The notes under the pieces are model-generated. The model was not told where the DNA came from. It did no database searches and saw nothing but the letters and a program-made list of their open reading frames with translations. Positions 30,954-62,765 of a stretch of DNA of 64,000 nucleotides are shown in pieces. The DNA is taken from NCBI GenBank assembly GCA_002457215.1, contig NTJZ01000008.1, positions 1 through 64,000 of the forward strand, written 5' to 3'. Source of the DNA: OM182 bacterium MED-G28 (GTDB lineage: Bacteria; Pseudomonadota; Gammaproteobacteria; Pseudomonadales; Pseudohongiellaceae). The position numbers and the translations under genes were made by a program. Each line of letters begins with the position of its first letter. The first letter of the stretch is position 1.

Positions 30954-33071
30954 ATGCTAGGCAAAGTTTTTCTTAAAAATCCAGCAACGATGTCAATCGT
31001 CAAGCTCACTATTTTTTTAGCACTCTTTAATTCTTCAGATTCCCTGGGTCAGGAAAACGTTAGTTACTCTGAAGAACAATCGACAACTGGTCAGCAAATC
31101 TATGAGCAACGTTGTGCGTCTTGTCATGGTTTTAATCTGGAAGGATTCGAACTGGCGCCTAGTTTGAGTGGTAATTTTTTCGCTCGCCGGTGGGGAGCTG
31201 GCCCGGCAGATAATCTGGCCAGGAATGTGCAGCGGATGCCACCTAACGAGGCTGGACTTTCCGAAGGGCAGGTTGCCAGTGTTTTGGCCTATATCCTGAG
31301 CCGCAATGGAGTGGAGCCGGGAGTGAATCTGTTACCAACTAACCTTGAGCAGCTTGCCAGCCTAACAATTCCAGCTCAGCCGCTGGTCGATCAGCGTTTT
31401 ACTCCGCGGAGCCCCAGTTTTTCAACAAATGGTCCAGTTCTTCCTGTGAGTCGACTCGATGACCTGACTCCCGTTACAAACGACTTGCTTCTTGACCCGC
31501 CTGCCGATGACTGGCTAGTTTGGCGCCGCACGCATTCGAATCTGGGACATAGCCCTCTTACCGAAATTAACAAAGGCAACGTAGATGACTTGAGGCTCTC
31601 CTGGACCTGGTCACTCCCACCAGGGGCAAACATGATGACCCCAATCGTTCATGACGGTGTAATGTTCGCGCTAAGTTCGGGGGATGTCGTTCAGGCGATT
31701 GATGCAACTACCGGTGATTTACTATGGGCCTATCAGCATGAACTTGAAGGAGAAAATCCATCGGAGTCTAAAAAAGGAGTAGCCATCTGGGAAGATAAAA
31801 TCATTGTGGGTACCTCCGACGTTAAACTCATCGCACTTGAGGCCAAAACAGGAAGACTGGCCTGGGAGCATAAAATAGATACGAATGATGAACCTGACCA
31901 TCGTTTTAAGTCGGCTCCGATGATAGTTAACGACAAGGCAATATTCGGGCTGGTAGGACAGATGGCTGTGGCTGGTGGAAATTTTATCGTGGCCATCGAT
32001 CTGAATTCAGGAGAGGAGGCCTGGCGTTTCTATACAATCGCGCGCCCTGATGAGCTTTACGGAAATAGCTGGAATGGCTTAAGCCTTGAAGAGAGGACTG
32101 GCGGGTCAGTTTGGACACCAGGGAGTTATGACCCCGATACCAACCTGGTTTATTTTGGGCCTGCACCGACTTACGATACGGTAACAATGAGAGAATTTAG
32201 AAACGTGCCAGGTACAACATCTGATGCACTATACACTAATTCTACTATTGCTCTTAATGCTGATACCGGTGAACTGGCGTGGCACTTTCAGCATGTTAAA
32301 AATGATCTGCTTGATCTTGACTGGGCATTTGAGCGACAAATAATGGAACTGCCTGTCAATGGGGAAATGCGTAAGGCAGTAGTCACGGGAGGCAAGGCCG
32401 CAATCTTCGAGGCGATGGATGCGGTGACGGGTGAGTATCTGTTCTCGATTGACCTTGATATGCAGAATGTTTTTAGTGAGATCGACCCCCGCACTGGCGA
32501 CAAGACAATGTTTCCAGAGGCCGTGCTTCAGCCTGGCGAAGAAACTCCCGGTCTCGCTAAGAATGGCGTTTGTCCCGATGCGCTTGGTGCTCGAAACATG
32601 CAGAGCACCTCCTATAATCCAGATACTAAGATTCTCTATGTGCCAATGCAGGATACCTGTATAAATAATCTTACAAATCGGCGATGGCAAAAATATCCTA
32701 ATCCTGAGCAAGACGGCTTGTGGGGATTGGTTAAGGCGGTCAATCTAGAGACACGTGAGGTAGAGTGGACGACTAGACAGTTCGCGCCACCAGCGAGCGG
32801 TCACCTAACTACTGACACAGGTTTGCTCTTTAGGGGTACGATTGATCGCTTATTTCAGGCAGTCGACCAGGAAGATGGAGAGGTTCTCTGGCAACAGCGA
32901 CTAGACAATGCTCCAACTTCTTATCCAATTACCTACAGGGTAGACGGAAAGCAATACGTTGCGGTTGCTACAAATTCAGGTAGCTACTTCGCCAATGGCA
33001 TGGAGAGAACGACGGGTATTACAAATTCTCCAACTGGTGCATCGCTGTGGGTATTCAAATTGCAGGACTAA
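30954..33071 (+). CDS. PQQ-binding beta-propeller dehydrogenase with N-terminal cytochrome c
   Basis: 705 aa. A hydrophobic leader about 16-32 (GQE). One cytochrome c domain comes first (CASCH at 54-58, ligand Met in VQRMPPNEAG), then an eight-bladed propeller with DWLVWRRTHSNLGHSPLTEIN, W-motif repeats such as ALEAKTGRLAWEHK, and DLDWAFERQ. It should oxidise an alcohol or sugar in the periplasm and hand electrons to its own haem. In known quinohaemoprotein alcohol dehydrogenases the cytochrome is C-terminal; here it is N-terminal. A separate gene unit, converging on the cupin gene with 15 nt between stops. Confidence 0.88.
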   Translation: MLGKVFLKNPATMSIVKLTIFLALFNSSDSLGQENVSYSEEQSTTGQQIYEQRCASCHGFNLEGFELAPSLSGNFFARRWGAGPADNLARNVQRMPPNEAGLSEGQVASVLAYILSRNGVEPGVNLLPTNLEQLASLTIPAQPLVDQRFTPRSPSFSTNGPVLPVSRLDDLTPVTNDLLLDPPADDWLVWRRTHSNLGHSPLTEINKGNVDDLRLSWTWSLPPGANMMTPIVHDGVMFALSSGDVVQAIDATTGDLLWAYQHELEGENPSESKKGVAIWEDKIIVGTSDVKLIALEAKTGRLAWEHKIDTNDEPDHRFKSAPMIVNDKAIFGLVGQMAVAGGNFIVAIDLNSGEEAWRFYTIARPDELYGNSWNGLSLEERTGGSVWTPGSYDPDTNLVYFGPAPTYDTVTMREFRNVPGTTSDALYTNSTIALNADTGELAWHFQHVKNDLLDLDWAFERQIMELPVNGEMRKAVVTGGKAAIFEAMDAVTGEYLFSIDLDMQNVFSEIDPRTGDKTMFPEAVLQPGEETPGLAKNGVCPDALGARNMQSTSYNPDTKILYVPMQDTCINNLTNRRWQKYPNPEQDGLWGLVKAVNLETREVEWTTRQFAPPASGHLTTDTGLLFRGTIDRLFQAVDQEDGEVLWQQRLDNAPTSYPITYRVDGKQYVAVATNSGSYFANGMERTTGITNSPTGASLWVFKLQD

Positions 33072-33086
33072 ACAAAGGCCTAGAAA

Positions 33087-33590
33087 TTATTGATAGCGAA
33101 TTGGCGCAGTCGTAATGCGTACACGAGACTCCATATAGGTAATGGAGTCACCATCTATATTACTAAACCAGTGCGGCGTACCCGGCTGGAGAACAAGGAT
33201 GTCACCTTCTTTAACTTCTCTGGACAAGCCACCCTCGATACCATGGAGAGTTCTCATTAAATCATCACTAGTTTGTTCCGCAAGTGGTGTGATGAGAAGG
33301 CCACCAGTAACCAGTGTCCCGCTGCCTTCGAGGATACGATAAATTTCAACGCTGTGTGGATGCATTACCGAATACTGTGGGACTCCACTCATACGGCGCC
33401 GAACTGATATGCCAGGAGAAATCGTGACCGATACGCCAGCGGCCGAGGTCGAGTTCCGCGCGGCTTCATCTAGCTCAGCAATTATCTCGGGTCCCGGTTT
33501 AAATATTGCGGGAGGTGCGCCTGATTCTTGTGCGGAGCTCAGGAAACTGAGAAGGGCTATTACAAGCCCGGTGATAAGCTTTCCTTTCAT
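33087..33590 (-). CDS. Exported cupin protein
   Basis: 167 aa. Signal peptide about 1-20. The cupin barrel is recognised by HPHSVEIYRILEGSGTLVTGG (metal His and Glu of motif 1, about 77-97) and motif 2 GDILVLQPGTPHWFSNI (about 130-146). A small periplasmic metal-binding enzyme or sensor; substrate unknown. The last gene of the minus-strand operon from 37734; its AGGA ribosome site overlaps the stop of the preceding 45-aa gene. Confidence 0.82.
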   Translation of the reverse strand: MKGKLITGLVIALLSFLSSAQESGAPPAIFKPGPEIIAELDEAARNSTSAAGVSVTISPGISVRRRMSGVPQYSVMHPHSVEIYRILEGSGTLVTGGLLITPLAEQTSDDLMRTLHGIEGGLSREVKEGDILVLQPGTPHWFSNIDGDSITYMESRVRITTAPIRYQ

Positions 33591-33598
33591 TTGGAATC

Positions 33599-33736
33599 CT
33601 AGGCTCGAGCGTTAACCATAAGAAAGACGAGCATCCCTGTCTCGAGAGCATCAGAAAAACCGGGTATAAAAAGAATGCTCAGTACTGTCAATATGCCAAG
33701 CACTCCGCAAAGTTTAAGATATTTTCTATTGTCCAT
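33599..33736 (-). CDS. Small membrane protein, tandem copy B (45 aa)
   Basis: Read directly: ATG at 33736 preceded by CGGAG 6 nt away, stop TAG at 33599. One hydrophobic helix (about 9-25) after a basic N-terminus (DNRKYLK), then PGFSD, a second partly hydrophobic stretch and a terminal NARA. It aligns without gaps with the 45-aa copy A, 24 identical residues of 45, including TVLSILF, PG, SD and NAR. Such a match in two adjacent frames shows both are real coding sequences. No family is recognised; perhaps a membrane anchor or regulator for the exported enzymes of this operon. Both termini are conserved, so it is complete. Confidence 0.78.
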   Translation of the reverse strand: MDNRKYLKLCGVLGILTVLSILFIPGFSDALETGMLVFLMVNARA

Positions 33737-33738
33737 AG

Positions 33739-33876
33739 CTAGCTCCGGGCGTTAGTAACTAAGAATGTAAGCATTCTGGATTCTATAGTGTCAGAAAGTC
33801 CTGGCACAAAAAGAATACTTAAAACTGTCAAAACAGTGATTGATGCACAAAGCAGTACATAATTTTTAGCTGTCAC
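33739..33876 (-). CDS. Small membrane protein, tandem copy A (45 aa)
   Basis: Read directly: GTG at 33876 preceded by AGGAG with a 9-nt spacer; stop TAG at 33739. A single membrane helix about 7-25 (LTVLSILFVPG core), then a Ser/Asp turn and amphipathic tail ending NARS. It is 12 nt after the stop of the 182-aa gene and 2 nt before copy B. The two genes have the same length and a period of 140 nt, so they arose by tandem duplication; DNA identity is low enough that the duplication is old and protein sequence has been kept by selection. Function unknown. Confidence 0.78.
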   Translation of the reverse strand: MTAKNYVLLCASITVLTVLSILFVPGLSDTIESRMLTFLVTNARS

Positions 33877-33888
33877 TTTGTATTACTC

Positions 33889-34437
33889 CTAGTTGAGCTC
33901 TCGTGGAACAAGTTCAAATACCCAAGAGAGGCCCGCTTCAATACCAGCTCTTGTTGCCGCGATGGCTTCAGGTGATGCGGTAGGCGCTCCACCATATTTT
34001 GTAATGAGTTTTGCAGATACACCATTGAGCACATCACCTTCTGTGATTCGAACGAGCGTGCGTGGGTAACGAATATTATTTACACGTAGAACGCCCTCAT
34101 TATTGCCCTGATCTGCCTCAAAGGCCCATTCTTTCCAAAGCCTGCCTAGCATTGTGGTCATGTAACCCGAGATAATAAAAAGTCGATTCTCGCTCTCAAG
34201 CACATAGATAAGGCGAGATGCCATTGGGTTGTTTAGCTGAAGATCTACAGTTTCAATGTCATCTGTAAAGCTCCAGTCCGGTTCGGGGCCAGTATGCAAC
34301 TGGCCACTAGTCATTTCACCTCCAGGGAAGAGTATAGAAGGGCCATCCGCGTTACGATTTTCGAATCGCATCGTCGCCATCGCAAGTGCGGGGATTAATA
34401 TCAGGACCCCCAGGATTTGCAGTATTATTTTTTTCAT
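33889..34437 (-). CDS. Exported or membrane-anchored protein of unknown function (182 aa)
   Basis: The first 22 residues form a hydrophobic leader or anchor (LQILGVLILIPALAMA). The mature part starts GPSILFPGGEMTSG and contains PDWSFTDDIETVDLQL, a strand-rich core (RLIYVLESENRLFIISGYM) and RYPRTLVRITEGDVLNGV. I recognise no motif for catalysis or cofactor. It is the fourth gene of the minus-strand operon, 38 nt after PDLxGxW copy 4 and 12 nt before the first 45-aa gene. Close packing suggests it works with these neighbours. Confidence 0.75.
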   Translation of the reverse strand: MKKIILQILGVLILIPALAMATMRFENRNADGPSILFPGGEMTSGQLHTGPEPDWSFTDDIETVDLQLNNPMASRLIYVLESENRLFIISGYMTTMLGRLWKEWAFEADQGNNEGVLRVNNIRYPRTLVRITEGDVLNGVSAKLITKYGGAPTASPEAIAATRAGIEAGLSWVFELVPRELN

Positions 34438-34475
34438 ACTTTCACACCTTAATTATTAATCAGCTTTATTTTTTA

Positions 34476-35432
34476 TTAATTTTCTGGAGTATTTGTTTCC
34501 ATCTCTCGTGCTTCTTCTACTCGTGCACCACGCAAAATATAAGTCATGGCGTAATTGCCTTCATGACATGCATATTCGTATTGCCTGTAGTCAGGTAATC
34601 TGGGTAGAGGTCTGACAGCAGTCCAGGGTCGGGTGTAGACTGTTGGATCCTCGACTGTGAAGGAGTAGTCGATCATGTCTTCACCGACCCGTCTGAACCT
34701 TTCTACAGCTATGGTATTTTTTGAGGAAGGAAAACGGTGCCTCGTCTTTTCACTAAAATTTGCTGTACGAACAACAAGAGTATCGCCATCCCAATAACCT
34801 CGGGAATCCCCATTCCATTGGCGGATATTGCCATGAAGTTGCGGACGACCATCGATAGGAATGATCCTAACATCGTGAATCATTTCTACGTGGATCGCCA
34901 CAAAGTCTTCATTTTGTACTATGTGGTATGAATTGTTATAACCAGAAGAAACAGGGGGCACGCCGTGGTAGGTTATGCACCGATCCCAGTTTGTTCGATC
35001 CAGCCAAGAATCAGCAGGATGGTCGCGTAAATATGCTGCTTGTTCCCTTTGTTTTGCGATCGTTGTTTCAGAGACGGGTAAGCGTCCATCAGGTGGATCT
35101 ACAATAAGCGAGGTCCGCAGGTCCGCTGATATTTCTCCGCGATCAAACCACTGATAGTTATAGCTGCCGACATCCCCAGGGCGATCTGCTACGTCTTGTT
35201 GTGTGTTTTCGAATATCGTTGCAGCTTCTTCCGGGGTGTAGAATTCTTTTTCCCCTAGCCGGCCAGGTCGTTGGAGGGGAGTCAAACTCGCATAGGACCA
35301 CATACCGGAAATATCCGGATCACCCCAAGGAGTCTGCTTACTGTAATTATTGTCTGATTGAGCAATTAATGAAGTGCTGGCTAAAAGTAACCACACCACG
35401 GAGCCCAGTACTGCGACGAATTTGCTTTTCAT
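34476..35432 (-). CDS. Exported PDLxGxW-family protein, copy 4
   Basis: 318 aa. Signal peptide about 1-24 (LIAQ). Mature start WGDPDISGMWSYASLTPLQRP. Shared blocks with copies 1 and 3: DRCITYHGVPP, YNNSYHIVQN, HDVRIIP, NGDSRGYWDGDTLVVRTANF and EYACHEGNYAM near the end. It lacks the VRYxxGGI block of copies 1 and 3. Third gene of the operon that starts with a haem/monooxygenase-like protein, which is the strongest context link of this family to periplasmic redox enzymes. Function unknown. Confidence 0.8.
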   Translation of the reverse strand: MKSKFVAVLGSVVWLLLASTSLIAQSDNNYSKQTPWGDPDISGMWSYASLTPLQRPGRLGEKEFYTPEEAATIFENTQQDVADRPGDVGSYNYQWFDRGEISADLRTSLIVDPPDGRLPVSETTIAKQREQAAYLRDHPADSWLDRTNWDRCITYHGVPPVSSGYNNSYHIVQNEDFVAIHVEMIHDVRIIPIDGRPQLHGNIRQWNGDSRGYWDGDTLVVRTANFSEKTRHRFPSSKNTIAVERFRRVGEDMIDYSFTVEDPTVYTRPWTAVRPLPRLPDYRQYEYACHEGNYAMTYILRGARVEEAREMETNTPEN

Positions 35433-35526
35433 TAGTATTCTCCGTCACGCTGAAGTTGAACAAAGAATACCATAGTAAATAGTACGTTAAGAAGGCAGTT
35501 TATTATTAGGGTATGAACTTAAGAAG

Positions 35527-36396
35527 CTATTCATTAACTTCGACCCGCACATAAGCATTAGTCCAGCAACAGTGAAACTCAAAACCATAGGTTGGATCTC
35601 TTGGTCGCTCGGTATCATTAATTGCCTGGATGCGCAGCATATACTCGCCTGCCTGTTCGAATGTTGCTCTTGTTTCAATGATTCCTTCAGCACTGTCTAT
35701 GCGAGACTCAGCAGCACTGAATTCGACCGCATTAGTGCCCTGGTGTAATGTCCAATTAATCCAGGTCCCCGGCGCGGCGTGCCTAATTCGAGCAATGAGG
35801 TTTATTGGTTCGCCAACTTTCGCTTGCCATGGTCCTTCAAACAGACCTCGGCGGCCGCGAAAATTTGGGGGATTATCATTAATGCTGAGATAAGGAGCCG
35901 ATGTGTTTCGACCAGAAGTTTCTTCCTCGTCAAGAACATAGGAAGGAATCAAAGTGCCGGGAACAGATAACATCTTACCTTGGGTTTCTATGTTCCAAAT
36001 CACATCTGCCATGCCGAAGTCTTCCGGTACTGTAACGGAAAATGCGCACCAGTAGCGCCGAAATTCAGGCGTTAGTTCAGGGGTGGGACGTGTGTCGAAA
36101 TGAGTCGGTTGCAGACCATCGTAGACTTCGGGTTCGATAAAATTCTGTTGGCCCAGAGGCACATCGATTTGTTCTTCAGAATTCATATTGTAGTAACCAA
36201 AGCACATGGTCGACGTGCCATCTTCATTTGGAAACCAACCATCAAACAATGGAATTACGTGCTGGCCTTGCGAGCGCAAGGGCGCTTCACTCAGAGGGTT
36301 AAAGACATCGGCAGTTTGAGCAGACACAACTGAAATGCTGCTTACCAGAAAGGAAAACAGTACCGCCTGAATTCTCTTGCTTTTAACGACTACCAC
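35527..36396 (-). CDS. Exported beta-rich protein, partner of the haem/monooxygenase-like protein (copy 2)
   Basis: 289 aa. Starts with GTG 3 nt after the stop of the upstream gene; no clear Shine-Dalgarno, so translation is probably coupled. Signal peptide about 1-26 (VSAQ). Homologous to the protein at 1241-2179: VIPLFDGWFPNEDGT, VPLGQQNFIEPE, DGLQPTHF and the C-terminal HCCWTNAYVRVEV. The Cys pair near the end is conserved in both and may bind metal or form a disulphide. Second gene of the seven-gene operon. Confidence 0.8.
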   Translation of the reverse strand: MVVVKSKRIQAVLFSFLVSSISVVSAQTADVFNPLSEAPLRSQGQHVIPLFDGWFPNEDGTSTMCFGYYNMNSEEQIDVPLGQQNFIEPEVYDGLQPTHFDTRPTPELTPEFRRYWCAFSVTVPEDFGMADVIWNIETQGKMLSVPGTLIPSYVLDEEETSGRNTSAPYLSINDNPPNFRGRRGLFEGPWQAKVGEPINLIARIRHAAPGTWINWTLHQGTNAVEFSAAESRIDSAEGIIETRATFEQAGEYMLRIQAINDTERPRDPTYGFEFHCCWTNAYVRVEVNE

Positions 36397-36399
36397 TTA

Positions 36400-37734
36400 T
36401 TATTCGCCGCTAGCCGCAGTCAACCTGGCGTTGCGTTCAGCAGTTAAACGGTCGAATTGATCTTCAGAAAGGTAGGTAATGCCTAGCCAAAGATGAGACA
36501 TCTCATCGACACCACGTTGCCCAAACACAACCCATTGGCGTGGGTCTGGATTGTTCGGATTATCTGCTGTGTTATCCCAGGTTGACGTAATCATTAACAT
36601 TGTTCCTTGGGGCAACAAAGGTGCGGCATCTTCAGCGAATTCATAATTGATCTGCCAGGAATGATCATACTTATCTACTCTAGCTAACATCTTGCGGCTG
36701 CCATCAGGATAGATAGCTTGCAGAGATTGAGCCCGACCACGCATATGCATGTGGGGACGGAAGCTGGTTATAAGAGCTGGCTTTTCAAGTACGCGTACGC
36801 CTTGTAATGATTTTACTGAATCTGGCGGCAGCACAAGATCGTTTGCCCATAATCCTCCCGGGCCAGAATCAGCTGCAAAGAATTGCTCACCTCTGGTCTC
36901 AAATTCTGGCTTATAGCCTCTGGGGTAAAGCCATACAGCAGCTTCTGCTTGTTCATTAGGTACTATTTCGTTAATGGGGAAGTAGTGAAGATTCCAATTT
37001 ATGGATCCGCTAGGGTAAATCAGCATCCCCGTACCTTCGGGGAATTGATCCCCGCCTTTTCCAACCCCTTGCCTACCTACTGGGCCGGAAGCTCGATTCC
37101 CATTGTCATCGAAGGATCTTAATTGTGCGTGGCCATGATGTAGAACTTTGACACCAAGTGGATAAGATCCTTTCAGCTCAGTCGCTCTTACATAGCGTGG
37201 CTCGTCAATTACACCTTCGAAGGAGGTATTGCGCACCCACCACTGATCTTGCGCATTTGCAGTAACAGTGTAGGGCGGCGACTTAACTACGAAATCCGGC
37301 GCGCCTAGAGTGGAAGATAGTTGCCATTGTCCTGCATCAGGAAGGTTTGGTTGAGGTGGCGTCAGAGCAGGATCGCCTTGCGGTGCGCCATTCTGAGCCC
37401 AGGCAATTACTTTAGTAATTTGCTCAGCGTTAAGTGATACATCGTTCTTATAGGCCTGGATACCGACCGTTTGGTCTAAATGCCAAGGTGGCATTTCCCG
37501 ACGTTCCACTTTGTAGCTAATTAATGGTGCCCAAGGTCGAACTTCTTCATAGCTTAGGAGTGACATAGGCCCAATCCCATCAGGATTATGGCAGCTAGAG
37601 CATTTGTCAAACAGGATGGCGGCAATATCTTCTGAATAAGTTATAGCTCGTTCATTGGCGAGGACCACAGTGTTGGAAAGTGCCAGAAGAACCAGGCCGC
37701 TGAGAAGATTTTTTCCAGTAATTAAGTTTTTCAT
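36400..37734 (-). CDS. Exported c-type haem protein with copper-monooxygenase-like region
   Basis: 444 aa from ATG 37734; an in-frame start 12 codons earlier would give a non-leader N-terminus. Signal peptide about 1-26. Haem motif CSSCH at 45-49, then NPDGIGPMSLLSYEEVRPWAPLI and EMPPWH. The copper-monooxygenase-like part has VLHHGH and, near 325, PHMHMRG, so both putative copper sites are present; DEMSHLWLG near the end fits the Met-ligand region of PHM. Likely a periplasmic oxidase or oxygenase fed by its own haem; substrate unknown. First gene of the operon running down to 33087, divergent from the selenoprotein gene at 37981. Confidence 0.83.
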   Translation of the reverse strand: MKNLITGKNLLSGLVLLALSNTVVLANERAITYSEDIAAILFDKCSSCHNPDGIGPMSLLSYEEVRPWAPLISYKVERREMPPWHLDQTVGIQAYKNDVSLNAEQITKVIAWAQNGAPQGDPALTPPQPNLPDAGQWQLSSTLGAPDFVVKSPPYTVTANAQDQWWVRNTSFEGVIDEPRYVRATELKGSYPLGVKVLHHGHAQLRSFDDNGNRASGPVGRQGVGKGGDQFPEGTGMLIYPSGSINWNLHYFPINEIVPNEQAEAAVWLYPRGYKPEFETRGEQFFAADSGPGGLWANDLVLPPDSVKSLQGVRVLEKPALITSFRPHMHMRGRAQSLQAIYPDGSRKMLARVDKYDHSWQINYEFAEDAAPLLPQGTMLMITSTWDNTADNPNNPDPRQWVVFGQRGVDEMSHLWLGITYLSEDQFDRLTAERNARLTAASGE

Positions 37735-37980: not shown

Positions 37981-39114
37981 ATGAAAACAGTAGCGCAAAA
38001 AATCCTTCTAGCCCTTTCCCTAGTCTTTACCGCTAGCTTCAGTCTAGCGGCTGAACGTGAATCTATCGTGGTCGCTAACTTGGGTCCGCAGATCGGCGAG
38101 CAGGTGCCTAATTTCCAGCTTCCCGATCAGTTTGGGCAAATGCAGAACCTTGATTCCATAAAAGGTCCGAACGGAACGATGCTACTGTTCCATCGTTCGG
38201 CTGATTGGTGACCCTACTGTAAAGCGCAACTCGTGGAGTTGCAGGATCAGCTAGATGCGTTGCAGTCGCAGGGTATAGGAGTGGCTGCCATTAGTTATGA
38301 TTCCGTTGAAGTGCTTGCAGACTTTGCTGAGCGTCGCGGAATTACTTATCCGATCCTGGCTGATGATGATTCTGCTGTTATCACAGAATTTGGTATTTTG
38401 AATACGGTAGCTGCGGAAGGGATCGGTGAAAACGCTGATGATCCTGATGTGCAGGCGGACGTTGCAAAATATGTTTCTGCTTTTGGTGCAAATCAGATGA
38501 TAGTAGGCACACCGTATCCTGGTACTTTTATGCTTAATAGCAGTGGCGAAGTAACTTCTCGATTTTTTGAAGAGTTTTATCGGGAGCGCAACACGACCTC
38601 TAATATTATGCTGAAGGTAGGTGCGGGTCTTTCACCGATAGCTGCTGTAGAAGGTGAAACCGCTCATTTAAAGTTCACTGCTTATCCATCAAATTCAACC
38701 GTTACTGTTGGAACGCGCTTCTCTCTGGCGCTCGAAGTAGACCCTGGTCCCAATATGCATGTGTATGCGCCAGGGGCTGAAGAAAAGGGTTATCGAGTGA
38801 TCGGATTTAACCTTGAACCTTCTGAGTTGGCTAGATTTGAACCGGTTGAATTTCCAGACTCTGAAATTTATTACTTCGAGCCTCTTGATGAGCATGTGCC
38901 GGTTTACCAGCAACCGTTTACAATTCTGCAAGAAGTGGTCATGAGTGGAGATGCGGAGGCTGAGGGAATCATGGCAGAACTCGATGCACTGACCTTGACA
39001 GGAACTTTAGAATATCAAGCTTGCGATGATGCAATTTGTTTCTTGCCACAATCGATTCCTGTGTCGTTTACTCTCGACCTTGATAACCCCGACCGACAAC
39101 GCGCTAATCGTTAG
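37981..39114 (+). CDS. Selenoprotein: redoxin (UxxC) fused to DsbD-alpha-like domain, UGA read as selenocysteine
   Basis: 377 aa if UGA 38209-38211 is decoded. Signal peptide about 1-23. The redoxin domain starts IGEQVPNFQLPDQFG and reaches FHRSADW, then UGA, then PYCKAQLVELQ. The relatives of this redoxin family carry Cys here (DWCPYCK), so UGA sits exactly on the first active-site Cys, giving U77-P-Y-C80. The frame stays open for 301 codons after UGA and keeps the family pattern (VAAISYDS, YPILADDDS). A hairpin 14 nt past UGA fits a bacterial SECIS. Residues about 225-377 resemble the N-terminal DsbD domain, with CDDAIC at 348-353. A periplasmic thiol/selenol redox protein is expected. A GTG start six codons upstream (37963) is possible. 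A nonsense mutation or sequencing error is the alternative. Confidence 0.85.
38226..38242 (+). promoter_or_regulatory. SECIS-like hairpin downstream of the in-frame UGA
   Basis: GCAACTC (38226-32), loop GTG, GAGTTGC (38236-42): a perfect 7-bp stem. The loop begins with G-U, as SelB-binding bacterial SECIS loops do, and its G is the 22nd nt after the UGA, within the range described for bacterial selenoprotein genes. It lies within coding sequence (AQLVELQ). Confidence 0.75.
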
Positions 39115-46544: not shown

Positions 46545-47849
46545 CTAAATAGACAGGCGACCAGTTGAATCGCCCAAAGATTCGATCGGTGTGCCTAGCT
46601 TATCTAATAAACCGAGGTGCATGTTTGAAAGAGGGGTCGCTTCAGGGTATTGGAGGTGATATCCACCATGAGCAACATTTCCTGCTAACATGATTGGCAA
46701 TTCTCGAGAGTAGTGGGAATTACTGTCAGCCATTCCCGCTCCATAGACAATCATCGAAGAATCCAACAAGGAACCATTTGCATCTTCCGATGTGCGCAGA
46801 CGATCCAGAAATTCTGCAAAGAATGTCATGTGGTACTGGTTTATCTTTAGTAATTTTTCGAGCTTTACAGGATCGCGCTGGTGATGAGAGATTGGATGAT
46901 GGGCATCTGGCACACCAATTTCTGCATAAGTACGACCGGTAATTTCGCGACCCATCATAAAGGTTGCGACTCGAGTCATATCCGTTTCCCAGGCTAGAGC
47001 CATCATGTCGAACATGAGACGCGCGTGTTCAGCAAAAGTATCTGGAATACCTGCTGGTTGATCCACGACCGGAAGTTCACGATCACTTTGAGCTTCAGCC
47101 ATTTGGATTCGTCTCTCAACATCACGCACAGCTTCTAAATATTGGCCTAGCTTGGTCTGATCACTTGCCCCGAGTTGTCGCGAAAGATCCTGCGCGCGCT
47201 GAGTCACTGAATCAAGCAGGCTTGCATCTTTGCTGAGTCGAGCGCGTCTCACTTTTGGATCGGTGCTTCCTGTATCTCCAAACAAGCGTTCAAAAATTGC
47301 TCTTGGATTGTTTTCCATAGGCAGTGGCGTGGTCTCATTCGCCCAGGTAATGGTATTGGTATAAGCGCAGCTGAATCCTTCGTCGCATGATCCGGCAAAA
47401 TCCCGTCCATCAATGGCTAACTCAAGTGTGGATAACTGCGTTTCATTGCCAAGAAATCTTCCAGCAATTTGGTCCATGGAAATGCCTGCACGAAGATTTG
47501 AACCATTATCCCGCGTTGACGCAACACCAGTTAGAAAACGAGTAGAGGCGCGTGCATGTGGACCTTCCCCATCAACTCCATGAAGTCCGCTAATAATTTG
47601 CAGTTGTTCACGAAAAGGTTCCATTGGTTTGAGTATCGAAGGAAATTCAAACCCGTCCCCGACTGTTGAAGGAGTCCAATGATCCATTCTCATGCCATTA
47701 GGTACGTAAACAATGCCAAGGCGTTTTATAGGTTTCGGAGCAGTATTCGCCATTGCAGGGATCATGGCGTCTAGCATGGGTAATGCTAAAGCAGCACCGA
47801 AGCCGCGCAACATAGCGCGACGAGGAATAGCCTTTTTAGTGATGATCAT
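46545..47849 (-). CDS. DUF1552 protein with twin-arginine-like leader
   Basis: 434 aa. N-terminus IPRRAMLRGFGAALALPML is a twin-arginine-type signal. Conserved DUF1552 blocks include LGIVYVPNGMRMDHWTP, SGLHGVDGEGPHARASTRFLTG, STLELAIDGRDFAGSCDEGFSCAYTNTITW and HHPISHHQRDP. The start ATG overlaps the stop of the DUF1592 gene by 4 nt, so they are translated together. Exported, presumably metal-containing; biochemical role unknown in the family. Confidence 0.9.
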   Translation of the reverse strand: MIITKKAIPRRAMLRGFGAALALPMLDAMIPAMANTAPKPIKRLGIVYVPNGMRMDHWTPSTVGDGFEFPSILKPMEPFREQLQIISGLHGVDGEGPHARASTRFLTGVASTRDNGSNLRAGISMDQIAGRFLGNETQLSTLELAIDGRDFAGSCDEGFSCAYTNTITWANETTPLPMENNPRAIFERLFGDTGSTDPKVRRARLSKDASLLDSVTQRAQDLSRQLGASDQTKLGQYLEAVRDVERRIQMAEAQSDRELPVVDQPAGIPDTFAEHARLMFDMMALAWETDMTRVATFMMGREITGRTYAEIGVPDAHHPISHHQRDPVKLEKLLKINQYHMTFFAEFLDRLRTSEDANGSLLDSSMIVYGAGMADSNSHYSRELPIMLAGNVAHGGYHLQYPEATPLSNMHLGLLDKLGTPIESLGDSTGRLSI

Positions 47850-50308
47850 GATTCGGACCTCCGCGTTCGGAATGGGGCACTTTTTACTATGCCCATAATA
47901 ATAGATGACCAGCTGTAGTTATCCAATGCCGCAGACCGGGTGATCATGCGCACTGTTGGTTTATCAAAATATTCAGGTGGACGCCCGATGGCATAAGCGA
48001 ATAGTTTCTCAGTGACTGTTCCAGCGAATTCATCACTTCTGTCCAGAAGAATGTTGCGTAACCCATTTAAGCCATAAAACGCCGTGCCATTTGGTAGTTG
48101 GCCTGAGGCATCGATGGCTAGATTAGCTTCACCCGTATCTCGCCATCTGCCTACGGCATCAAAATTTTCTAATGCCAGGCCTAATGGATCCATGGGTAAG
48201 TGGCAGACAGCACAATTTGGATCTTCCCGATGTTGGATCATGCGGTCACGAATAGTAGCTGGCTGACCATCTGCCCCATTTTCAGGCAAGTCCGGTACGT
48301 CCGCTGGTGGAGGTGGAGGGGGGGTCCCAAGGATATTAGTTAGTACCCATTTGCCTCTTAATACTGGAGATGTTCTATTGGCATACGAAGTCGCTGTAAG
48401 CAAGCTGCCTTGTCCTAAAATACCGCCACGTTGTTGCGCAAGTTCACCCTCTAAATCTACTCTACGGAAATGGCTACCGTAGACACCCTCAATTCCATAG
48501 TGCTTAGCGAGGCGCTCATTAACATAGGTATAGCCAGCACCTAATAGATCCAGGACAGATCTATCATCTCTCAACAAGCTCTCAAAATATAATTCACTTT
48601 CTTGGCGGAAGGCGTTACGTAAATTTTCATCGAATTCGGGAAATTCGACAGCGTCGGGTACCAAGCTTCGAAGATTACGCAAGTATAGCCATTGGCTGGC
48701 AAAGTTCTTTACCAGTGCGCTGGAACGCGGATCGCCCAACATCCGCTGAGTTTGAGCTTCTAGGATATCTGGGTTTTGAAGCTCACCCCGTTCAGCAATG
48801 GAGAGCAGTTCTTCATCTGGGATACTGCTCCACAAAAAGAAAGACAGGCGGGAAGCTAACTCTAGATCGCTTAGTTCATAGTCGGTTGCGGGAGCAACAT
48901 TTAACGGGTCTTGTTCAACTCGAAAAAGAAAATCTGGGGAAATCAGAATTCGCTCGACGGCAAGCTGTATCCCTGCATCAAAACCTGATTGTCCATCGCC
49001 ACGACCTATACGGTAAAAATCCATCAAGGTATCAATATCAGTTTGTTGGAGAGGGCGACGGTAGGCGCGGTTGGCGAGGCCAGAAAGAATCTCAGTTGCA
49101 CAAACTTCTTCAGAACTTAGGTCATTGCTGGCGGGTGTGCAGACAAATATGGCACGGCGGCTAGGTGTGTCGCCAGGGCCCGCTGCATCGAAGGGGCCAG
49201 TAATTTGTGCTTGTTCTATGGCGGCATCGCCATCACGCATTTCATTAATGGCAGCCGCGAAAACAGATTGTGGGGGCTGTAAAACGCCTTCTGGTTCGGT
49301 AAACCTTCGTACAAAAGACAGACCAACAATATGGGGTCCAGGCTCGGCTTCGAAACGAAGCCTTAAGTTCGAATCCGCGAAGAGCATATACTCTTCCCAT
49401 TCTCGGTCTCCGAATTGGTTGCCGCCATAGCTTGCAGGGGCTTGCAATACATCTGGTTCTTGGCCGCCTATTGCAAAGCTTTGAATCAGTTTGCCATCTA
49501 AGCGTACTTCGATTTCATGTTGTGATCCCATGCCTCGAATATAGTTTACGTAGTTACGGTGCAGTCTTAAGGAAAGGTCATATTGACCCGCAACAGGGAA
49601 GTAATGATCCATGGCCACGCCACCGCGAGAGCCAAAGGGCAGATCATCACTCATACGATCATTCTGGTTTAGCAATATTGGCACTTCGTAGATTTGTGAT
49701 ACAGGCCCTAAAGGTTCTTCCCCGATAGCTAAACGTGCGGTTTTTCTTGCCGCAGACAAATAACGCTCCATTAGTGCGGGGGAAACCGTTAACACATCGG
49801 CCATATTGTCAAAGCCATAGGCGTCAATGTCATCGGCTGGCAGTAATTCTTCCACATCTACATTGATATTTAATAAATCACGTACTGAATTTGCATACTC
49901 GGCTCGATTAATTCGATGAAAAGTGTCAGTGCGCCCGGGGTTTGGAGCAGTGGCAGCTAGTTCGTCAATTTCTGACTCAAGCCAAGACACCAATTCGTTA
50001 TAAACCGCTTCAGAAGGTTTAGGCATTTCCATGGGGGGCATGCGGCGGTTTCTTAACTGTGAGAGTACTTTTTCTTGCAGAGCACCGTGATTCGAGACTT
50101 CTGATAAATCGAGGTTCTGGAACGAGACGTCGGCAGTGCTTAATGAGTCGTTATGACAAGCTAAGCAATACTGATTTATAGTGGTGTTGAGAAGCTCACC
50201 AGCAGATTGTGCGCCAGTGGTGCTCGACAGTAGTAACGGCGACACTACTGCAAGCAGTTGGATCAGTGCAGTTCTAGGCCATGGAAAACCGAGAATTCTA
50301 GGGCTCAT
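47846..50308 (-). CDS. Planctomycete-type cytochrome c protein (DUF1587/1595/1592/1588/1585)
   Basis: 820 aa. Signal peptide about 1-34 (TGAQ). Haem motif CLACHND at about 48-54, then RNRRMPPMEMP. DUF1587 has RINRAEYANSVRDLLNINVD; DUF1595 the NRAYRRPLQQTDIDTLM segment; DUF1592 has SRLSFFLWSSIPDEELL; DUF1588 has NRTSPVLRGKWVLTNILGTPPPPPP; DUF1585 is the end (AYAIGRPPEYFDKPTV). A second haem-like CAVCH lies at about 702. The combination is the second of the two planctomycete-type cytochrome systems in the window; the first is at 26739-30845. First gene of a two-gene operon, divergent from the ankyrin gene. Confidence 0.9.
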   Translation of the reverse strand: MSPRILGFPWPRTALIQLLAVVSPLLLSSTTGAQSAGELLNTTINQYCLACHNDSLSTADVSFQNLDLSEVSNHGALQEKVLSQLRNRRMPPMEMPKPSEAVYNELVSWLESEIDELAATAPNPGRTDTFHRINRAEYANSVRDLLNINVDVEELLPADDIDAYGFDNMADVLTVSPALMERYLSAARKTARLAIGEEPLGPVSQIYEVPILLNQNDRMSDDLPFGSRGGVAMDHYFPVAGQYDLSLRLHRNYVNYIRGMGSQHEIEVRLDGKLIQSFAIGGQEPDVLQAPASYGGNQFGDREWEEYMLFADSNLRLRFEAEPGPHIVGLSFVRRFTEPEGVLQPPQSVFAAAINEMRDGDAAIEQAQITGPFDAAGPGDTPSRRAIFVCTPASNDLSSEEVCATEILSGLANRAYRRPLQQTDIDTLMDFYRIGRGDGQSGFDAGIQLAVERILISPDFLFRVEQDPLNVAPATDYELSDLELASRLSFFLWSSIPDEELLSIAERGELQNPDILEAQTQRMLGDPRSSALVKNFASQWLYLRNLRSLVPDAVEFPEFDENLRNAFRQESELYFESLLRDDRSVLDLLGAGYTYVNERLAKHYGIEGVYGSHFRRVDLEGELAQQRGGILGQGSLLTATSYANRTSPVLRGKWVLTNILGTPPPPPPADVPDLPENGADGQPATIRDRMIQHREDPNCAVCHLPMDPLGLALENFDAVGRWRDTGEANLAIDASGQLPNGTAFYGLNGLRNILLDRSDEFAGTVTEKLFAYAIGRPPEYFDKPTVRMITRSAALDNYSWSSIIMGIVKSAPFRTRRSES

Positions 50309-61985: not shown

Positions 61986-62765
61986 ATGAAATTTATGAAG
62001 AGCCACGTGTTCTGGTTTGTGGTATTGGGTAGTTTAATTTTTGTCATCGACGAACAAACTTCCGATCCGCTCGATATTATAGTTGTGGATGCTGCGCTTG
62101 AGCGGCAAGTGGCGGCGCTCTGGGCTGCACAAATACAGCGTGAACCAACCGAGGCAGAGGTAGTGAGCCTCGTCGATGATTGGGTTACTGAAGAGATCTG
62201 GCGTCGGGAGTCCATGCGGCTCAATCTGGCAGAAGAAGATGAAATTATCCGCCGGCGGATGATTCAGAAGATGCAATTTATTACCGAGCAGGAAGCCGTA
62301 CTCGCGCCGACCGAAGAAGAACTCCAGGCCTATTACGAAGCGAATCACGAGAGATATGGAGTTCCATCTAGTGTTTCCTTCGAGCAACTCCAATTTCAGT
62401 CTCGCGAAGCGGCAACCGGCGCGCTTAGTGCAGGAGAATCGCTTGCCGACCTGGCGGAGTCTTCGATGCAGAGCCGGGTGAATGTCCGCCAATCACCACT
62501 GCAAGTTGCCAGTACATTTGGCCCTGAATTTACCCGGTCGCTCAATAGCTACGACGTGGCTTTGAATTGGCAAGGTCCCATAAAAAGCACTTTTGGTTGG
62601 CACCTGGTGAAGTTGCTTGAGATAAATTCCTCCTCTGTCGCGCCATTTGAGGATATTCGCGCGACTGTCCACGGCGACTACACCTATGAATCACGATTGC
62701 AGGCCCAAGCAGACTTCATCGAACAAGTGCGTTCGAACTATGACATCGTTCGCAAAGAAGAGTAA
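61986..62765 (+). CDS. PpiC-type peptidyl-prolyl isomerase, membrane-anchored
   Basis: 259 aa. A hydrophobic N-terminal segment (HVFWFVVLGSLIFVI, about 6-20) is likely an uncleaved anchor. A helical part (QREPTEAEVVSLVDDWVTEEIWRRE) is followed by the parvulin-like domain at about 115-245 (APTEEELQAYYEANHERYG, SVSFEQLQF, FTRSLNSYD, GWHLVKLLEI). It would assist folding of exported proteins in the periplasm. Starts 2 nt after the DUF3604 stop and is followed by a HupE-like gene after 12 nt. This trio is a recurring arrangement by my recollection, unverified. Confidence 0.83.
   Translation: MKFMKSHVFWFVVLGSLIFVIDEQTSDPLDIIVVDAALERQVAALWAAQIQREPTEAEVVSLVDDWVTEEIWRRESMRLNLAEEDEIIRRRMIQKMQFITEQEAVLAPTEEELQAYYEANHERYGVPSSVSFEQLQFQSREAATGALSAGESLADLAESSMQSRVNVRQSPLQVASTFGPEFTRSLNSYDVALNWQGPIKSTFGWHLVKLLEINSSSVAPFEDIRATVHGDYTYESRLQAQADFIEQVRSNYDIVRKEE

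What the first reader, a model, noticed from the sequence alone, without database searches (positions are those of the whole stretch)
37981..39114. Strong candidate selenoprotein: redoxin with UxxC active site fused to a DsbD-alpha-like domain
Seen: one reading frame is interrupted by a single UGA (38209-38211) placed in FHRSADW-UGA-PYCKAQL. Related redoxins have Cys at this exact position. The second half has no ribosome site of its own, and its first in-frame GTG lies inside the predicted hairpin loop. A 7-bp hairpin with a GUG loop starts 14 nt after UGA. Known: bacterial Sec insertion needs UGA plus such a hairpin read by SelB. Inference: Sec77 is the attacking selenol, and CDDAIC in the DsbD-like domain may be its internal electron donor. 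Standard gene callers would split it into two false genes.
Basis: partly seen in the sequence, partly recalled or inferred. Interest (0 to 1): 0.92.

Follow-up and report, generated by a model that had tools for sequence, protein, structure and literature searches.

The report
Two-domain periplasmic selenoprotein redox enzyme
A gene that looks broken by a stop codon most likely encodes an exported enzyme that uses the rare amino acid selenocysteine and carries a second domain like the one that hands electrons to such enzymes in other bacteria; relatives with the same stop codon occur in several bacterial phyla.

Summary
In detail: one frame (37981-39114) with a single UGA at codon 77 and, 14 nt later, a 7-bp GUG-loop hairpin. 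Selenocysteine is very strongly supported by comparison. In 59 coding sequences (own gene included) UGA sits in one column, Cys80 is invariant, and Cys348/Cys353 stand in the 58 that reach them. A genome scan allowing TGA, TGC or TGT stopped at 118 hits: 116 TGA, 2 TGC, mostly Acidobacteriota and Gammaproteobacteria. Both TGC genomes lack selB and tRNA-Sec; 16 of 18 tested TGA genomes have selB, 14 tRNA-Sec. Hairpin codons are nearly frozen, and one base pair covaries on a tree (about 7 of 8 independent changes together, none opposed). The hairpin meets the published bacterial SECIS criteria. The own draft has selA, selD and the start of selB, cut by a contig end; tRNA-Sec was not found, but the closest relative carries it about 17 kb beyond that break. 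The C-terminal domain is DsbD/ScsB-alpha-like by Pfam and predicted fold. UxxC Prx-like selenoproteins are known since at least 2005; I found no description of this fusion. Untested: Sec in the protein, and whether the alpha domain feeds the selenol.

The parts
37981..39114 (+). Whole coding sequence, 377 aa, read through one UGA as selenocysteine
37981..38052 (+). Probable signal peptide (MKTVAQKILLALSLVFTASFSLAA), read by eye; AF2 confidence is low here
   Evidence: by eye, no signal-peptide program run
38092..38556 (+). AhpC/TSA-type (Prx-like, thioredoxin-fold) domain, residues 38-192
   Evidence: Pfam PF00578 E 1.2e-26; Foldseek to Prx, AhpE and ResA structures
38209..38211 (+). UGA read as Sec77 of the UxxC active site
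38218..38220 (+). Cys80, presumed resolving cysteine of UxxC
   Evidence: invariant in 59 of 59 and 50 of 50
38226..38242 (+). bSECIS apical hairpin: 7 bp, GUG loop, 21 nt from UGA to loop
38635..39111 (+). DsbD/ScsB alpha-like domain, residues 219-377 (Pfam match 243-358)
39022..39039 (+). C348-DDAI-C353, aligned with the two active-site Cys of E. coli nDsbD
   Evidence: 58 of 58, 50 of 50; weak alignment with 1l6p (E 0.34)

Best explanation
An intact gene for an exported two-domain selenoprotein. Steps supported here (by comparison, not biochemistry): UGA 77 is decoded as selenocysteine, directed by the hairpin just downstream; the first domain is a Prx-like thioredoxin fold with a UxxC active site and a proline at the usual cis-Pro position; the second is a DsbD/ScsB-alpha-like domain with a conserved CX4C pair. 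Steps inferred: the protein is secreted to the periplasm; the Sec77 selenolate attacks an oxidised substrate (disulfide, sulfenic acid or peroxide) and a Sec77-Cys80 selenenylsulfide forms; the tethered alpha domain (C348/C353), recharged by the genome's membrane DsbD/ScsB-type reductase, reduces it, as free nDsbD reduces the thioredoxin-fold proteins CcmG, DsbC and DsbG. I put about 0.97 on Sec, 0.9 on the alpha-domain identity and 0.55 on the intramolecular relay.
For: Low pN with high pS on both sides of the UGA in 7 of 9 pairs, the other two pairs being close. Near-frozen synonymous codons in and just before the hairpin: AAA 56/57, CTC 57/59, GTG 56/59, GAG 59/59. Codon pair CAA..TTG 40, CAG..CTG 14, CAG..TTG 5, CAA..CTG 0 of 59; in 82 distinct sequences of the broader scan 65 have all 7 pairs and 17 have 6, against 4.4% and 21% of synonymous shuffles (this set overlaps the 59); on a tree about 7 of 8 independent pairs go the same way, 0 opposed, median p 0.016. 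bSECIS criteria (PMC13188914, passages) are met. Sec machinery co-occurs, and both TGC genomes lack it. C-terminal fold: the only PDB matches under E 0.001 are ScsB-N, nDsbD and the nDsbD/cDsbD complex. One DsbD_TM protein found in the draft genome. nDsbD chemistry: PMC7347389, passages.
Against: No tRNA-Sec in the draft (the 8 best hits are other tRNAs) and selB is cut. The single-sequence fold is unremarkable. Of 18 TGA genomes tested, 2 lack both selB and tRNA-Sec (G526, G529) and 2 more lack the tRNA (G513, G528), so absence of the machinery is not confined to the TGC genomes. 1 of 59 and 10 of 116 hairpins miss the -7.5 kcal/mol limit when folded as 17 nt (1 of 59 and 6 of 116 as 27 nt). 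The Lys81 codon that is frozen in the genus is not frozen in the wider set (AAA 70, AAG 46 of 116), and Gln83 is no more biased than other Gln columns. No constant partner gene names the substrate. The profile match to nDsbD by sequence alone is weak (E 0.34). The distance between Sec77 and C348/C353 in the model could not be measured.
Confidence: 0.88

Rival explanations
1. Pseudogene or sequencing error: the UGA is a real nonsense mutation or a miscall.
For: A single draft genome with an in-frame stop; selC is not in the assembly.
Against: The same UGA in 58 further coding sequences and 116 of 118 pattern hits, and purifying selection downstream.
Confidence: 0.01
2. Two separate genes: the UGA is a true stop and the second half is translated from its own start.
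For: A mechanical ORF list splits it, with a GTG start at 38233.
Against: That GTG is GTC or GTT in 3 of 59 and lies in the hairpin loop; the split falls inside one domain (Pfam 38-192); the invariant Cys80 lies between the UGA and the GTG, so neither product would hold it.
Confidence: 0.02
3. UGA is read as another amino acid (Trp or Cys) or by unspecific readthrough.
For: No tRNA-Sec in the draft; two of the 18 TGA genomes tested also show neither selB nor tRNA-Sec.
Against: TGA ends 5 of 37 open frames of over 250 codons in the window; selA, selD and part of selB are present; the only two TGC cases seen lie in genomes without selB and tRNA-Sec; the downstream hairpin is maintained.
Confidence: 0.02
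4. Selenoprotein, but the alpha-like domain is not the electron donor: it binds a substrate or a partner, or is itself the entry point for oxidised clients, and Sec77 is recycled by an outside reductase.
For: No measured contact between the two active sites; sequence similarity to nDsbD is weak outside the Cys region.
Against: C348/C353 are as invariant as U77/C80, and the known partners of nDsbD are thioredoxin-fold proteins.
Confidence: 0.35

Closest known systems
Prx-like selenoproteins with UxxC (Sargasso Sea 'Prx-like protein'; GOS 'Prx-like 1', pfam00578; 'Prx-like thiol:disulfide oxidoreductase' in PMC13188914)
   Same: PF00578 domain, thioredoxin-like UxxC in place of the Prx TxxU
   Different: Those entries as I read them (passages and tables) name no DsbD-alpha extension; here 104 of 116 UGA hits carry one
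GOS fusion selenoproteins (Prx-like 3/Unknown_3, Prx-like 2/Secretin_N-like; PMC2398784, passages, supplement not seen)
   Same: A Prx-like selenoprotein fused to another domain, with conserved Cys in Unknown_3
   Different: Unknown_3 has three conserved Cys including CxxC; here there are two, as CX4C. The supplement was not readable, so identity cannot be wholly excluded
DsbD / ScsB (nDsbD, alpha domain)
   Same: Alpha-domain fold with a two-Cys active site; nDsbD hands electrons to CcmG, DsbC and DsbG
   Different: No DsbD_TM domain; alpha follows the redoxin; the redoxin is UxxC; CX4C instead of C103/C109 spacing
TsoB, rhodanese/DsbD fusion-like selenoprotein NF045694 (table row in PMC13188914)
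   Same: A selenoprotein with a DsbD-like part
   Different: Rhodanese, two Sec, UxxxxU motif; not among the NCBIfam families matched by the 50 members at E 1e-5
NCBIfam NF040769 SelL-related redox protein, NF041054 WAxxUGC_long
   Same: Weak similarity over the redoxin domain
   Different: 43.9 bits against a cut-off of 120, and 28.9 against 300

Membership tests
Bacterial selenoproteins (SelB/SECIS) | In-frame UGA at a column where homologues have Cys or Sec | tested here: met
Bacterial selenoproteins (SelB/SECIS) | SECIS model: 3-9 nt loop, 4-16 bp stem, G in the first two loop positions, 16-37 nt from UGA, MFE at or below -7.5 | tested here: met
   3 nt, 7 bp, GU, 21 nt, -7.7 (hairpin alone) or -12.6 (50 nt); criteria from PMC13188914 Fig 2 legend
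Bacterial selenoproteins (SelB/SECIS) | selA and selD in the genome | tested here: met
Bacterial selenoproteins (SelB/SECIS) | selB and selC in the genome | tested here: inconclusive
   selB cut after 155 codons by a contig end; selC not found; both present in closest relative G067
Bacterial selenoproteins (SelB/SECIS) | Selenocysteine in the protein | not testable with these tools
   needs mass spectrometry or 75Se labelling
Prx-like UxxC selenoproteins (PF00578) | PF00578 domain | tested here: met
   50 of 50 members
Prx-like UxxC selenoproteins (PF00578) | UxxC active site | tested here: met
   UPYC in 59 of 59; two CPYC variants among 118 pattern hits
Classical Sec-peroxiredoxin (TxxU) | Thr three residues before the Sec/Cys | tested here: not met
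   Residue 74 is Ala in 49 of 50 and Val in 1
DsbD/ScsB | Alpha domain with two-Cys active site | tested here: met
   Pfam 47 of 50, fold; Cys alignment weak
DsbD/ScsB | Membrane domain DsbD_TM | tested here: not met
   No PF02683 match in P0001 or among the families of the 50 members, E up to 0.001

The most novel reading that the evidence does not exclude
A widespread, previously unnamed family of extracytoplasmic selenoenzymes in which the Sec redoxin carries its own DsbD-alpha-type electron donor, wiring selenium catalysis directly to the periplasmic DsbD/ScsB reducing pathway; it occurs in several phyla, is multi-copy in some genomes, and can revert to Cys where Sec machinery is lost.
Probability: 0.5. 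Interest if true: 0.72.

Novelty: new variant of a known kind. Interest (0 to 1): 0.6.

Why it matters
Gene callers that read UGA as stop would split this family, so a group of exported selenoenzymes in Acidobacteriota and Gammaproteobacteria would be annotated as two fragments each. If the alpha domain is the donor, it would answer for one family how a periplasmic selenol is kept reduced, and it offers a compact model (two redox pairs on one chain) to test. The Cys/Sec exchange alongside loss of the Sec machinery is a natural experiment, so far with two cases only.

Tried and rejected
Rejected: sequencing error, pseudogene, split gene, other meaning of UGA (see rivals). The C17 match to selB (24 positions) lies just downstream of an EF-G gene at the contig end; from gene order I take it for the start of EF-Tu, without a further search. 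The 8 of 10 RF01852 matches of the own genome that became loci are ordinary tRNAs. A classical peroxiredoxin was rejected on the missing Thr. No constant partner: neighbour clustering over 139 loci shows synteny among Pseudohongiella genomes and some neighbours shared with Acidobacteriota at varying distance and orientation: a DUF1592-type protein (12 loci) and a DUF1552-type protein (11 loci), both also in the window at 46548-49993, and a protein with sulfatase-like look (9 loci, label by eye). The 50-locus cluster near offset -342 is mostly an antisense frame of the gene itself. Rfam gathering search of the window: 0 matches. Viral contigs: 0 matches. In 369 Gammaproteobacteria drawn evenly only the own genome matched at E 1e-40.

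Full report
OBSERVATION. The frame 37981-39114 is open except for one UGA at codon 77. The hairpin 38226-38242 is a perfect 7-bp stem with loop GUG, 14 nt after UGA; 21 nt separate UGA from the loop. Folded alone it is not special (z -0.63, 50 of 200 shuffles as good), so the claim rests on comparison.

RELATIVES. A search of 146 genomes, the own included, with the read-through protein gave matches in 90 at E 1e-10. From 57 loci, the own gene among them, I extracted 59 coding sequences (30% to nearly 100% identity): UGA at the same column in 59 of 59, Cys80 in 59 of 59, and Cys348 and Cys353 in all 58 that reach that far. Twelve more distant, short redoxins were read at this column: 7 UGA, 5 Cys. 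By record title, the 95 rows used for a tree are 56 Acidobacteriota, 30 Pseudomonadota, 3 Chloroflexota, 2 Gemmatimonadota, one each of Thermomicrobiota, Dormiibacterota and Actinomycetota, and the window. In 369 Gammaproteobacteria genomes of 272 genera drawn evenly, only the own genome matched at E 1e-40, so the family is patchy there; identity between the window protein and a protein from a bin named Gemmatimonadetes (L110) is 71%. Transfer between phyla is likely, but bins can be mixed.

CODING AFTER THE UGA. In 9 pairs compared, pN is at most 0.21 on either side of the UGA; in the 7 more distant pairs pS is 0.59-1.00. None of the 59 frames has another stop before its end.

THE HAIRPIN AS SECIS. 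The review PMC13188914 (passages read) lists the bacterial model; loop length, stem length, G in the loop, spacing and energy all fit. Energy of the 17-nt hairpin alone meets -7.5 kcal/mol in 58 of 59 and 106 of 116 sequences. Synonymous codons there are nearly frozen in the 59: entropy 0.25 (Leu84), 0.34 (Val85), 0.00 (Glu86), and 0.13 at Lys81 just before the hairpin, while other conserved Leu and Val columns, Leu87 of the hairpin apart, have 1.87-2.59 bits; other Glu columns have 0.55-0.99, there is no other conserved Lys column, and Gln83 (0.91) is like other Gln columns. In the 116, GAG stands in 116 and CTC in 102, but Lys81 varies freely. The third base of Gln83 pairs with the first of Leu87: A-U 40, G-C 14, G-U 5, A-C 0 of 59, and 25, 52, 5, 0 of 82 distinct sequences from the scan. 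All 7 pairs stand in 65 of 82 and 6 in 17, against 4.4% and 21% after synonymous shuffling. On the protein tree (quick search) the two sites change together in about 7 of 8 independent pairs and never oppositely, median p 0.016.

MACHINERY. selA (575 bits, C3:6209-7594) and selD (behind a Pyr_redox_2 domain, 757 aa) are present. selB starts at C3:465 and runs off the contig after 155 codons. tRNA-Sec was not found; 31 of 41 genomes of the genus have it (own included, a miss), and 34 of 58 genomes (own included, a miss) have selB over the cut-off. In G067, whose protein is 98% identical, selB (C50:97064-98980) and tRNA-Sec (C50:81085-81176) lie on one contig; C3:1-1870 aligns to it at 95.5%, and a 14-kb stretch of G067 that holds tRNA-Sec finds in the own draft only 35 pieces, the longest about 590 bases and many of them repeats, none over the tRNA. 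The draft is 89.98% complete. So selC most likely lies in the unassembled gap. Of 20 genomes picked by hand, 2 have TGC and 18 TGA: selB 0 of 2 and 16 of 18; tRNA-Sec 0 of 2 and 14 of 18. Two TGA genomes thus lack both; their completeness is not told. The TGC protein L113 nests inside a UGA clade with L126 and L130, so Cys there is derived; L134, the other TGC, was too short for the tree.

DOMAINS. Residues 38-192 match AhpC-TSA, 243-358 match DsbD_N; 50 and 47 of 50 members do. AF2 gave pLDDT 92.2, pTM 0.86 for the whole, 91.9 and 0.84 for the C-terminal domain alone. Foldseek: the N-terminal part is like BcpB/AhpE/ResA; for the C-terminal domain the only PDB matches at E 0.001 or better are ScsB-N (6c29), nDsbD (3pfu) and the nDsbD/cDsbD complex (1vrs). 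The alpha-domain profile places C348 and C353 on the two Cys of nDsbD 1l6p, although E is only 0.34. The active site is WUPYC with Ala, not Thr, three residues before Sec, and P180 at the usual cis-Pro place (the cis-Pro reading is recalled): a thioredoxin-like oxidoreductase rather than a classical peroxiredoxin.

MECHANISM. In E. coli, nDsbD takes electrons from cDsbD and gives them to CcmG, DsbC and DsbG, all thioredoxin folds (PMC7347389, passages). Here an nDsbD-like domain is tethered to a thioredoxin-fold selenoprotein, and the draft has one membrane DsbD/ScsB-type protein. The simplest inference is a relay: DsbD/ScsB, then C348/C353, then Sec77-Cys80, then an oxidised substrate in the periplasm. 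The signal peptide is read by eye. The substrate is unknown. Neighbours give a hint at most: DUF1592- and DUF1552-type proteins recur in 12 and 11 of 139 loci, in Pseudohongiella and Acidobacteriota alike, and lie in the window too, but at changing distance.

KNOWN OR NEW. UxxC Prx-like selenoproteins were reported in the Sargasso Sea (PMC1088965, passages), in GOS (PMC2398784, passages) and in two reviews (PMC13188914, PMC9312934, passages). Fusions of such proteins with other domains are reported too. In the listings of searches (titles and starts of abstracts) and the passages read, I saw no fusion with a DsbD alpha domain; subscription papers and supplements were not seen. No NCBIfam model reaches its cut-off for the window protein. 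I therefore file it as a new variant of a known kind.

Noticed in passing
G000:C19:139998-140390 (L093 1325-1927, minus): A second UGA-containing redoxin of this genome, about 200 aa, DWUPFCKSQLVQL, without the alpha domain; similar short genes occur in other genomes of the genus.
   Followed up: partly
L106 2999-5272 (+), G000:C4: selD lies behind a Pyr_redox_2 domain in one protein, like the Ndh-SelD fusions reported in the GOS paper.
   Followed up: yes
L089 and L082: Fusion genes next to a more distant UGA-containing paralogue (30-31% identity), tandem in L089 and opposite in L082.
   Followed up: no
L255 1-9300 (G067 C50, beside tRNA-Sec): Repeat-rich stretch: an 80-nt family, and pieces of about 40-120 nt, many 90-98% identical, on several own contigs; perhaps why the own assembly breaks inside selB.
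   Followed up: partly
30954-37731: PQQ dehydrogenase with cytochrome c, a cupin protein and four genes without any Pfam match at E 0.001, syntenic in many of the Pseudohongiella loci compared.
   Followed up: no
46548-49993, minus strand: DUF1552 and DUF1592/1588/1587/1585/1595 proteins whose relatives recur near this gene family in Acidobacteriota; the DUF1592-type one lies directly downstream in L203, L210, L221 and L147.
   Followed up: partly
L226 (G000:C2): The one DsbD_TM protein found has an extra Cys-bearing N-terminal region before the membrane part and looks ScsB-like (label by eye).
   Followed up: no
62034-62690, minus strand, TGA at 62495: The only other place in the window where a TGA has 60 open codons before and 100 after; the context does not look like a redox motif (by eye).
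   Followed up: no
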